Origin: Nostoc commune NIES-4072
Lineage (GTDB): Bacteria; Cyanobacteriota; Cyanobacteriia; Cyanobacteriales; Nostocaceae
DNA: 64,000 nt
Direction: 5' to 3'
Assembly: GCF_003113895.1 (NCBI RefSeq)
Contig: NZ_BDUD01000001.1
Span: 4,227,513 to 4,291,512, forward strand
Each line of letters begins with the position of its first letter. Within the stretch, counting starts at the first letter, position 1. The position numbers and the translations under genes are program-made. This document shows, piece after piece, positions 27,253 through 29,717 of this stretch. Under the pieces are notes generated by a model. That model ran no database searches. It was not told the origin of the DNA and was given only the letters and a program-made list of their open reading frames with translations.

Positions 27253-27642
27253 ACAGACGCTACTTCAAGTTTTAACATTTATCTTTGCTTTCCATACATC
27301 GAAGCAGACATTTTTGTAACTAGCAACTTGGGTTATCTATATCTGTCTTATGTAATGAGTGTTATACCTACCCTAAGTGGGGTTATCTATCTACATTTGT
27401 TCGTTAAGTTATATGAAGTACTGAAAGCAAAGTTTCTCAGTAAATAACTGAGGAAATCAAAATAACCTTAACTTAGTTGGAGTTTTTTATGACTTACACA
27501 GCCGATGAAGCAACAAAACCAGCTTTAAAAACTTTTCAAGACCAAAGTAGCAACGGCGGGCTAGCCCCTAAATTCATTTATGGGGGTTAGCCGTTGGCGA
27601 TTTCAAGACGCTCGATGACTCGCTACCGCTACGCTATCGCCG

Positions 27643-28038
27643 TCAAGTTTCTTTTTGGTTTTGGATGTACATTTTCACCGCTTCCAGTGGTGCGCCTCCC
27701 ACTGTCGAAACAAAATAAGAATTAGTCCACAAAGTAGGTAATCTACTTTTCAACTCTGGAAATTCTAATCGCAAATACCTAGAAGTCGCACCTTTGAATC
27801 TCTTCACAACACGGTGTATTCCAAATTGCGGGTCAACTTCTACTAGTAAATGTACATGATCTGGCATTATTTCCATCTCTATAATTTCAACTTTAATGTC
27901 AATTGCTATTTGAGCAAGCAACTCTTTCAGTCGAGAGGCGATTGCATTCACAAGCACTGGCCTTCTGTATTTAGGGCAAAAAATAACATGATATTTACAC
28001 GAATAAACAACATTGTTGTTTGATTTAAACTTTTGCAT
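27643..28038 (-). CDS. tnpA: IS200/IS605 transposase TnpA (Y1, HUH family)
   Basis: 131 residues. The HUH motif is PDHVHLLVEV and the catalytic tyrosine lies in EAVKMYIQNQK near residue 124. FCPKYRRPVL and LWTNSYFVSTVGG are the other conserved blocks. The full-length enzyme cuts and rejoins single-stranded DNA at the hairpins at the element's ends. It is divergent from tnpB; its ATG (28038) is followed on the other side by the tnpB leader. Confidence 0.95.
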   Translation of the reverse strand: MQKFKSNNNVVYSCKYHVIFCPKYRRPVLVNAIASRLKELLAQIAIDIKVEIIEMEIMPDHVHLLVEVDPQFGIHRVVKRFKGATSRYLRLEFPELKSRLPTLWTNSYFVSTVGGAPLEAVKMYIQNQKET

Positions 28039-28097
28039 GGAACCTTGTTGACATTATATAGCCTGTAACTATATAGTATTTCAGGTAATGCTGTATA

Positions 28098-28108
28098 TCA
28101 AGGAGGTG
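28098..28108 (+). promoter_or_regulatory. Strong ribosome binding site of tnpB
   Basis: CAAGGAGGTGA precedes a GTG at 28117 by a normal spacing. An ATG at 28126 is too far away, so the GTG is the better start. Confidence 0.7.
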
Positions 28109-28116
28109 ATTTAAGA

Positions 28117-29295
28117 GTGTTAGTAATGGAGTACAAAGCAGTTGTCAAAAAACCACAAGCAAAAGCTATAGATGAAGCTATTCGCACAAGTCAGTTTGTC
28201 AGAAATAAAGTGCTTAGATATTGGATAGATAATCGTGGTATTGGCAAGAAAGAATTGTACCAATACAACACTCAATTAAGAGCAGAATATGAATTCGTGA
28301 GAGATTTGAGCAGTCATGCTTGCCAAGCATCTGTTGAGAATGTAGAACGTGCTATCAAGCGTTTCTACGACAACTGCAAAACTAAAAAGCAAGGATTGAA
28401 GGGCTATCCAAGATTTAAAAAACATAGTCGCTCTGTTGAATACAAACAACAGTCTTGGAAATTACACCCAACAAAACGACGAATAACATTCACTGACAAG
28501 AAAGGTATTGGTGAACTCAAATTATTGGGCAAGTGGGATATCCATACTTATCCTGTTGAGCTAATCAAAAGAGTTAGGATCGTTCGTCGTGCAGATGGGT
28601 ATTATGTGCAGTTTTGCGTAAAAGTTGATAACAAGCAGGAAGCACCATTAACTAATTCTGTTATTGGTATTGATGTGGGATTGGAATACTTCTACTCTGA
28701 TTCTTTCGGCAAGCATGAAGAAAACCCGCGATACTTGCGTAAAGCTGAGAAAGATATCAAACGGGTTCAGCGTAAAATTTATAAAAAGAAAAAGGGGTCA
28801 TCTGGTAGAAGGAAAGCTCGTGGTGTTTATGCTCGTAAACATTTGAAAGTAACTCGACGAAGGAATGAACACGCCAAAAAATTGGCGCGTAACTTATGCC
28901 TAGCTAACGCTAAGGTTGTCTTGGAAGATTTAAATGTTAGTGGGTTGGTGAGAAACCACAAACTTGCCAAGAGTATTTCTGATGCGTCTTGGTACAACTT
29001 CCGCCAGTGGCTTGAATACTTTGGAGAGAAATTAGGTCGGGAAATAATTGCTGTCCCCCCTCATTTCACCAGTCAAGAATGTAGTAACTGTGGTGCTAGA
29101 GTTCAGAAATCACTTAGTACTAGAACTCATTCTTGCTTGCATTGTGGTCACGTTGAACAACGTGATGTGAATGCTGCCAAAGTAATTTTAGGTCGTGCAA
29201 ACGCTACCGGAGGGCATCCGGGAAGTAACGCCAGTCGAGATGTTCCCTCTACTTCTGTTGGACGCAAGTCCAGTAAAAGCAAGGAGCGTCAGTGA
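28117..29295 (+). CDS. tnpB: RNA-guided nuclease-like TnpB (OrfB) of IS200/IS605
   Basis: 392 residues from GTG 28117. RuvC-like catalytic residues are visible: Asp in IGIDVGLEYF, Glu in VVLEDLNVSGL and Asp in EQRDVNAAKVIL. A zinc ribbon CSNCGARVQ ... CLHCGH lies between the last two. TnpB proteins of this type are RNA-guided DNA nucleases that aid retention of the element; the guide (omega RNA) would come from the tnpB 3' end and the right-end hairpin. All catalytic positions look intact. The TGA overlaps a GTG (GTGA) that opens the carotenoid-protein remnant frame. Confidence 0.95.
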   Translation: MLVMEYKAVVKKPQAKAIDEAIRTSQFVRNKVLRYWIDNRGIGKKELYQYNTQLRAEYEFVRDLSSHACQASVENVERAIKRFYDNCKTKKQGLKGYPRFKKHSRSVEYKQQSWKLHPTKRRITFTDKKGIGELKLLGKWDIHTYPVELIKRVRIVRRADGYYVQFCVKVDNKQEAPLTNSVIGIDVGLEYFYSDSFGKHEENPRYLRKAEKDIKRVQRKIYKKKKGSSGRRKARGVYARKHLKVTRRRNEHAKKLARNLCLANAKVVLEDLNVSGLVRNHKLAKSISDASWYNFRQWLEYFGEKLGREIIAVPPHFTSQECSNCGARVQKSLSTRTHSCLHCGHVEQRDVNAAKVILGRANATGGHPGSNASRDVPSTSVGRKSSKSKERQ

Positions 29296-29717
29296 CGCTG
29301 GAATCCCCTGCCTTCAGGCATGGGGAGTGTCAATTTGATGTAGATACTCAGCTAGCCCTACTTTGGTTCGGTTACTTGGATCTTAAAGAGCAGCTAAATC
29401 CAGCACCTCCTGAAAGCGTTCAAGCTATAGCTAAAGCACTGTTCGACCAAATCCAAGAGTTGTCTAAAGAAGAGCAACTGCAAGCACAACGCGACATTAT
29501 CAATGGTACAAACCAAACCTATAATAGTCTAAGTCCTAATGCTAAATTAGACGTTTGGTTGCTGCTGGCACAAGGAATGGACAATGGAAGCGTCATCCAA
29601 GTACCATCCGACTATCAACTTCCTGATGAAACGGATGAATTTGTGGCATTGATCAAAAAGCTAGAGTTTGAGCAACGCGTTAATTTTATGTTGAGTGTGG
29701 TGCAAGCATTCGGTTAG
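29292..29717 (+). CDS. Possible re-started C-terminal HCP frame from within the IS
   Basis: A GTG at 29292 overlaps the tnpB stop (GTGA) and opens a frame of 141 codons. Thirteen residues of IS end (MTLESPAFRHGEC) replace the native first 18 residues; the rest of the helical carotenoid protein is intact. Translational coupling to tnpB could therefore produce a near-complete product. Whether it folds or binds carotenoid is unknown, and without expression data this is a possibility only. Confidence 0.35.
   Translation: MTLESPAFRHGECQFDVDTQLALLWFGYLDLKEQLNPAPPESVQAIAKALFDQIQELSKEEQLQAQRDIINGTNQTYNSLSPNAKLDVWLLLAQGMDNGSVIQVPSDYQLPDETDEFVALIKKLEFEQRVNFMLSVVQAFG

What the first reader, a model, noticed from the sequence alone, without database searches (positions are those of the whole stretch)
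27489..29717. IS200/IS605 inserted in a helical carotenoid protein gene, with a possible rescued start
The pieces at 27489-27542 and 29331-29717 join without losing a codon (FQDQFDVD). The tnpB stop overlaps a GTG that opens the remaining 129 codons, so the IS might supply translation to a carotenoid-binding protein with a new 13-residue N-terminus. This is a natural test of transposon-driven gene repair.
Basis: partly seen in the sequence, partly recalled or inferred. Interest (0 to 1): 0.75.

Follow-up and report, generated by a model that had tools for sequence, protein, structure and literature searches.

The report
Jumping gene breaks a carotenoid-protein gene
In this Nostoc-type cyanobacterium a recently moved IS605-type jumping gene has cut off the first helix of a light-protection protein gene (HCP2), and the "new start codon" it seems to offer is best explained as a by-product of the element's own guide-RNA end rather than as a repair.

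Summary
The insertion is real; its edge needs a one-codon correction. The element is 27543-29333 (1,791 bp, IS200/IS605, tnpA and tnpB divergent), one of four identical copies in the genome, each preceded by AGAC and ending in TCAA. The GTG at 29292 does overlap the tnpB stop and opens 14 element-encoded plus 127 HCP2 codons, with AAGGAG five bases upstream. But it lies inside a covarying RNA structure (97.3% of cells paired), the expected TnpB guide-RNA scaffold, whose guide would be HCP2 codons. The right end offers open start codons in all three frames, and long extensions are not clearly commoner in the GTG frame among relatives (8, 2, 8 of 50 distinct flanks). The fusion lacks the conserved first helix. 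The intact downstream frame proves nothing: the insertion is too young. Best reading: an ordinary recent knock-out. Some translation from the GTG is possible; functional repair is unsupported, not excluded.

The parts
27543..29333 (+). IS200/IS605 element, 1791 bp, one of four identical copies in the genome
   Evidence: four 100% copies; common left flank AGAC, common right end TCAA
27539..27542 (+). AGAC, the target tetranucleotide 5' of the insertion; presumed TAM of the TnpB
   Evidence: 4 of 4 own copies; also in front of the 4 Anabaenopsis copies; TGAC in several more distant relatives
27559..27592 (+). left-end imperfect palindrome (GGCTAGCCCC...GGGGGTTAGCC), presumed TnpA hairpin
   Evidence: sequence; similar in relatives
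27643..28038 (-). tnpA, Y1 transposase, 131 aa
   Evidence: PF01797 E 1.2e-43
28117..29295 (+). tnpB, 392 aa, RNA-guided nuclease family, GTG start after AAGGAGGTG
   Evidence: PF01385 and PF07282; SD duplex -12.7 kcal/mol
29207..29333 (+). conserved structured RNA at the right end, presumed omega-RNA (guide RNA) scaffold; its true 5' end is not determined. It overlaps the tnpB 3' end, the AAGGAG and the GTG
   Evidence: 34 pairs in 5 helices, 97.3% of cells paired, 21 pairs with changes on both sides
29304..29326 (+). right-end terminal hairpin (TCCCC TGCC ... GGCA GGGGA)
   Evidence: columns 125-149
29334..29353 (+). presumed guide segment: the first ~16-20 bases of the HCP2 3' piece (extent inferred from other TnpBs)
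   Evidence: inference from the right-end boundary and passages of PMC8612924 and PMC10278001
29281..29286 (+). AAGGAG, Shine-Dalgarno-like, 5 bases before the GTG; these are Lys-Glu codons of tnpB
   Evidence: of 24 right ends at least 84% identical, AAGGAG is at this place in 5 (the four own copies and L097), AAGGAA in 18 (3 of them shifted by one base)
29292..29717 (+). fused ORF, 141 aa: GTG overlapping the tnpB stop, 14 element-encoded residues + 127 HCP2 residues
   Evidence: P0001
27489..27542 (+). HCP2 5' piece, codons 1-18 with native ATG; the frame reads on into the element to a stop at 27588-27590 (33 aa in all)
29334..29717 (+). HCP2 3' piece, codons 19-145 and stop

Best explanation
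A recently transposing IS605-type element inserted after codon 18 of HCP2, 3' of AGAC, and inactivated the gene. The junction at 29333/29334 is the boundary between the element's guide-RNA scaffold and its guide, so the HCP2 codons just downstream now serve as the guide of this copy's TnpB, which would be aimed at the empty HCP2 site (AGAC + TTTGATGTAGATACTC). The GTG that overlaps the tnpB stop, and the AAGGAG before it, are by-products of the tnpB 3' codons and of the conserved RNA fold. They may give some 141-aa product by coupling to tnpB translation, but that product lacks the first helix of the fold and is unlikely to replace HCP2. Shown: element ends, empty site, four identical copies, RNA covariation, loss of helix 1 in the prediction. 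Inferred: TnpB activity, guide use, absence of functional rescue.
For: Four identical copies with AGAC / TCAA boundaries. Uninterrupted HCP2 5' end in 17 of 17 same-genus genomes in which I read it (8, 5, 4 further ones). The right end is a covarying RNA in the 29 right ends aligned (window included): 97.3% of cells paired, against at most 48.6% when slid by 1-3 columns; three of the six AAGGAG bases pair in helix 3 and the GTG is in the unpaired junction after it. The window's element offers a start codon open to its right end in each of the three frames (GTG at -42, ATG at -14, GTG at -7). Flank extensions of 50 or more codons: 8, 2 and 8 of 50 distinct flanks for phases 0, 1, 2; only 4 of the 8 in phase 0 have the start at -42 (the window, L082, L084, L075). 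The other three own copies are open in the GTG frame for only 2, 27 and 6 flank codons. AlphaFold2: intact HCP2 P0002 mean pLDDT 83.0, pTM 0.78, helix 7-17; fusion 71.6, pTM 0.63, residues 1-12 below pLDDT 50 and no such helix.
Against: The fused ORF has a usable-looking Shine-Dalgarno (duplex -8.3 kcal/mol, against -5.9 for native HCP2 and -12.7 for tnpB), and its start is about as accessible in the predicted fold as the native starts (mean unpaired probability: GTG 0.38 against 0.31 for tnpB and 0.20 for HCP2). The median open length into the flank is somewhat longer in phase 0 (16.5 codons, against 8 and 9). The seven other helices are still predicted and the fusion model still matches 6mcj (E 4.3e-11, TM 0.80). 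No expression data exist here, and TnpB activity of this element is not tested.
Confidence: 0.85

Rival explanations
1. Functional rescue: ribosomes finishing tnpB restart at the overlapping GTG and make a truncated HCP2 with 14 new residues that still binds canthaxanthin and quenches singlet oxygen.
For: GTGA overlap and AAGGAG at 5 bases, SD duplex stronger than native HCP2, helices 2-8 retained in the prediction, fold match to 6mcj.
Against: The lost segment holds 8 invariant positions in the 32 HCP2 aligned and forms helix 1. The start signals belong to all four copies and to the guide-RNA fold. Of 24 close right ends 18 have AAGGAA and 5 AAGGAG. The fusion model is poorer (71.6 against 83.0). 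Of 6 nucleotide changes unique to the window's HCP2 among nine sequences, 4 are non-synonymous, one of them E14K at a nearly invariant position; too few to decide.
Confidence: 0.07
2. Reversible knock-out: the gene is repaired not by a new start but by precise excision. IS200/IS605 elements leave an intact donor joint, so some chromosomes in a polyploid cyanobacterium may carry the restored 145-codon HCP2 while TnpB cuts these and copies the element back.
For: No bases lost or duplicated relative to the empty site. tnpA and tnpB full length, four identical copies. The peel, paste and copy model is stated in PMC8612924 (passages); a TnpB gene drive on multicopy plasmids in PMC11870625 (abstract only).
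Against: No reads and no excision seen. The fused ORF P0001 is on two contigs in the protein database (the longest 7,150,659 bases, this genome's being 7,147,507), so the occupied state appears to be in a second assembly too. Polyploidy of this strain is assumed from general knowledge.
Confidence: 0.3
3. The fused ORF is transcribed and translated at a low level from tnpB or from the HCP2 promoter, but the product is degraded or inert (compatible with the best explanation).
For: Same start signals as above; the HCP2 upstream region points through the element in the sense of tnpB.
Against: Guide-RNA folding and processing of the same transcript would compete with translation (inference from PMC10278001 passages); no expression data.
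Confidence: 0.35

Closest known systems
IS605-type elements of the IS200/IS605 family (tnpA/tnpB; e.g. ISDra2, IS608)
   Same: Y1 transposase plus TnpB, subterminal palindromes, insertion 3' of a fixed short target, right end in TCAA (IS608 detail recalled), no target duplication, structured right end followed by host DNA.
   Different: Target AGAC here (TGAC in several relatives) instead of TTGAT (ISDra2, PMC8612924 passages) or TTAC (IS608, recalled).
TnpB omega-RNA / reRNA systems
   Same: Conserved RNA fold that begins within the tnpB 3' codons and ends at the element's right end; host sequence follows as guide.
   Different: No Rfam family matched here at its gathering score (two sub-threshold miRNA matches to a palindrome outside the element); activity untested; the guide falls within a host coding gene, HCP2.
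Helical carotenoid protein 2 (HCP2, PDB 6mcj)
   Same: The 3' piece is 70% identical to 6mcj; orthologs in 13 same-genus genomes are 64-94% identical.
   Different: First 18 residues are cut off by the element.

Membership tests
IS200/IS605 insertion sequences (IS605-type organisation) | Y1 (HUH) transposase | tested here: met
   PF01797 E 1.2e-43, 131 aa; HUH-like HVH and a C-terminal Tyr seen by eye only, motif recalled
IS200/IS605 insertion sequences (IS605-type organisation) | Fixed short target 5' of the element, no target duplication | tested here: met
   AGAC in 4 of 4 own copies; empty sites show neither loss nor duplication
IS200/IS605 insertion sequences (IS605-type organisation) | Subterminal hairpins at both ends | tested here: met
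   right-end helix 5 with covariation; left-end palindrome by sequence and similar in relatives, not folded
IS200/IS605 insertion sequences (IS605-type organisation) | Active single-strand transposition | not testable with these tools
   four identical copies suggest recent activity
TnpB / omega-RNA guided nuclease | TnpB with RuvC-like and zinc-ribbon region | tested here: met
   PF01385 and PF07282 above cut-off; catalytic residues seen by eye only
TnpB / omega-RNA guided nuclease | Conserved RNA scaffold ending at the right end | tested here: met
TnpB / omega-RNA guided nuclease | RNA-guided, TAM-dependent DNA cutting | not testable with these tools
   needs an interference assay
HCP2 | OCP N-terminal-domain fold without C-terminal domain, closest to 6mcj | tested here: met
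   for the 3' piece; the two flanks together give 145 aa like P0002
HCP2 | Complete fold including the first helix | tested here: not met
   helix 7-17 is absent from the fusion model. The locus is a broken HCP2 gene, not a working HCP2
HCP2 | Carotenoid binding | not testable with these tools
   needs the purified protein

The most novel reading that the evidence does not exclude
The element family carries a portable, Shine-Dalgarno-led start codon embedded in its guide-RNA scaffold, so that insertion in phase turns the rest of the host gene into a cistron coupled to tnpB. Each transcript then either becomes guide RNA aimed at the healthy allele or mRNA for the truncated host protein, never both.
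Probability: 0.05. Interest if true: 0.75.

Novelty: new member of a known kind. Interest (0 to 1): 0.28.

Why it matters
As a knock-out it is one more IS200/IS605 insertion, here in a photoprotection gene. It is a clean natural case, though: four identical copies, an exact empty site in sister strains, and a presumed guide that reads a known host gene. That makes it convenient for testing whether TnpB holds an element in place in a (probably polyploid) cyanobacterium, and whether sequence next to a guide-RNA scaffold can be translated. It also warns against reading an intact downstream frame as evidence of function when the insertion is young.

Tried and rejected
Pseudogene claim for sister HCP2 genes: one search flagged one stop inside the matches of G013, G008 and G021 (and one in another paralogue, L014). 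Reading them showed stops at or near the natural ends of the genes, so I dropped the idea that HCP2 is decaying elsewhere.

Selection test on HCP2: pairwise dN/dS of the window against the five sisters compared (of eight aligned) is 0.11-0.28, but nearly all that divergence must predate the insertion. Changes unique to the window are 4 non-synonymous and 2 synonymous, against 34 and 37 summed over the eight sisters; no conclusion either way.

Start-site accessibility did not separate the fusion start from the two real starts. Rfam gave nothing at gathering score. Pfam on in-frame extensions of other copies: three phase-0 extensions (L084, L075, L082) and one phase-2 (L139) matched no family. 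Matches were an NDK (phase 2, L100; almost the whole profile), an AraC-type HTH (phase 2, L125) and pentapeptide repeats (phase 0, L103, entered from starts other than the -42 one), so extensions into real genes occur in more than one frame.

The count of distinct right ends handled five contig-end copies badly (empty keys); one search repeated it properly and gave the same 42 and 16. The phase count (8, 2, 10 of 53 rows) contained duplicate records; on 50 distinct flanks gives 8, 2, 8.

Literature: searches for a precedent of such an element supplying a start codon (no paper; 23 papers, 12 listed; 1 paper) showed none on it in the listings; one search looked for this family in Nostoc (25 papers, 12 listed) and I saw only the listing. 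That covers only the open-licence library. Papers seen: passages of PMC10278001, PMC8612924, PMC8122715, PMC12059629 and PMC6123778; abstract and section list of PMC11870625; listings for the rest.

Full report
What is there. The window lies in a genome of 8.2 Mb in 11 contigs. It is of genus Nostoc by kinship: G052, labelled same genus, holds an 89% relative of the 3' two thirds of the element on a 223,442-base contig at 194807-196022, the same length and place as in plasmid NZ_CP040278.1 of Nostoc sp. C052. At 27543-29333 there is a complete IS605-type element: tnpA on the minus strand (131 aa, PF01797), tnpB on the plus strand (392 aa, PF01385 and PF07282). The genome has four copies identical over all 1,791 bases. 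All four have AGAC directly in front and end in GTGTCAA. Related elements in Anabaenopsis elenkinii also follow AGAC (4 of 4), and several more distant ones TGAC.

Exact edges. In all four copies CAA follows GTGT, and of 61 related right ends found in 99 loci 52 end in TCAA at the same place. In 13 of 13 uninterrupted HCP2 loci read at DNA level (8, 5, one of them a second look at G016), a single codon (CGC, AAC, GGC or GGT) stands between the codons for FQ or FK and the codons for FD, without a second CAA; protein P0002 carries the window's Asp there, FQDFDVD. The host gene is therefore codons 1-18 (27489-27542) plus 19-145 and stop (29334-29717), 145 aa, the length of its nearest relatives.

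Which gene. The 3' piece matches PF09150 and, among solved structures, best 6mcj (1.3e-57; Foldseek E 4.3e-11, 70% identity, 'Helical Carotenoid Protein 2 from Fremyella diplosiphon'). HCP2 binds canthaxanthin, quenches singlet oxygen and does not quench phycobilisomes (PMC8122715 and PMC12059629, passages). In one search, 13 of 22 same-genus genomes had a match of 64% or more, and the other 9 had a best match of 48% or less, to paralogues. I read the 5' end of all 13 and of 4 further genomes: 17 of 17 have a native start and no insertion. The own genome keeps five other PF09150 genes.

The start codon. GTG 29292-29294 overlaps the tnpB TGA, with AAGGAG five bases before it. The fused ORF is 14 + 127 residues and is in the protein database as P0001, on two contigs. 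Three facts make it look like a by-product. First, an NTGA overlap arises whenever a TGA stop follows A, G or T, and the AAGGAG is a Lys-Glu codon pair of tnpB; of 24 right ends at least 84% identical, 5 have AAGGAG there (the four own copies and L097) and 18 AAGGAA. Second, the window's right end offers start codons open to its edge in all three frames (GTG -42, ATG -14, GTG -7), and 16 of 42 distinct right ends do so; 19 of 42 have a start at -42 in the GTG phase. Third, extensions of at least 50 codons into the flank occur in 8, 2 and 8 of 50 distinct flanks for the three phases, and only 4 of the first 8 have the start at -42. The median open length is somewhat longer in the GTG phase (16.5 codons, against 8 and 9), so a weak preference is not excluded. 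Against the by-product view, the Shine-Dalgarno duplex of the fusion (-8.3 kcal/mol) is stronger than that of native HCP2 (-5.9), so some translation is quite possible.

The RNA. I aligned the last 150 bases (126 for one) of 29 right ends; these are 29 of the 42 distinct ones, the more distant and some partial ones being left out. The predicted consensus fold has 34 pairs in five helices. 97.3% of cells pair, 21 pairs have changes on both sides, and none of 500 shuffles reaches any of the five measures; sliding the partners by 1-3 columns gives 36-49% paired. The fold was predicted from the same alignment, which favours it over the slid versions, but the two-sided changes (for example GC 16 / CG 13 in helix 1) are hard to explain otherwise. 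It spans about 29207 to the right end and includes tnpB's last codons; three of the six AAGGAG bases pair in helix 3 and the GTG lies in the junction after it. This is what a TnpB omega-RNA looks like: the right end marks the 3' end of the scaffold and the guide follows outside (PMC10278001, passages). So the first bases of the HCP2 3' piece are the presumed guide, and the presumed target is the empty HCP2 site behind AGAC. This is inferred, not shown.

The protein. AlphaFold2 on the intact relative P0002 (32 sequences) gives mean pLDDT 83.0 and helices from 7-17 on. On the fusion (33 sequences) it gives 71.6, with residues 1-12 below 50 and the first helix gone; the other seven helices remain. 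In the 32 HCP2 sequences aligned (chosen from 673 found, 120 of which were listed), positions M1 T2 Y3 D6 P11 A12 L13 F16 of the lost part are invariant. A carotenoid-binding fragment cannot be ruled out, but there is no sign that the new residues replace the helix.

Age and power. No base differs between the four copies. With zero changes in 1,791 bases the 95% upper bound is 0.0017 changes per site since this copy split from the others, that is 0.64 changes and 0.03 new stops in the 127-codon piece. Its open frame therefore says nothing about function, and a stop-codon test in this strain could not have refuted the idea. Changes unique to the window's HCP2 are 4 non-synonymous and 2 synonymous, too few to use. 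The estimate assumes no gene conversion between copies.

The other copies. One interrupts a HlyD-like frame (PF13533 above cut-off, HlyD_D23 below it) that reads across the joint and carries a stop further downstream. One follows 22 codons that look like the start of a Uma2-type gene (by eye) and has no long continuation. One lies between a zinc-type alcohol dehydrogenase gene and an aminotransferase gene. In the GTG frame they are open for 2, 6 and 27 flank codons respectively.

Conclusion. The finding is a genuine, recent and precise IS605-type knock-out of HCP2. The start codon may be a source of some protein, but repair is unsupported. If the gene is ever repaired, precise excision is the likelier route, and TnpB would be expected to work against it.

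Noticed in passing
27212-27249 and 29922-29959: HCP2 with its upstream region is bracketed by a 38-bp direct repeat (95%); the downstream copy lies in the 3' coding end of the molybdopterin oxidoreductase gene. In two genomes without HCP2 (L181, L183) the Uma2 gene, a single repeat and the oxidoreductase follow each other with nearly the same spacing (84 and 20 nt) as in an HCP2-holding genome (L187: 85 and 20 nt): HCP2 looks like a presence/absence cassette between direct repeats. Of four HCP2-holding loci fetched, three show both repeats and one (L188) only the downstream one; of eight loci without HCP2, six lack a full-length, equally similar Uma2 gene at this place. 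Gain or loss not decided.
   Followed up: partly
L080-L084 (G041 contig ends): Five contigs of G041 break at bases 1666-1668 of the element and carry the same 93%-identical 124-126-base right end with different flanks, as expected for several near-identical copies collapsed in a fragmented assembly.
   Followed up: no
27603-27640: Between the left end and tnpA lies a short stretch (about bases 61-98 of the element) that recurs at 88-94% in seven other places of the genome, probably a common interspersed repeat.
   Followed up: no
29825-29854: A perfect 13-base inverted repeat (CTACCGCAAAGAT GAGT ATCTTTGCGGTAG) downstream of HCP2, between it and the convergent oxidoreductase gene; possibly a terminator; it gave only sub-threshold Rfam miRNA matches.
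   Followed up: no
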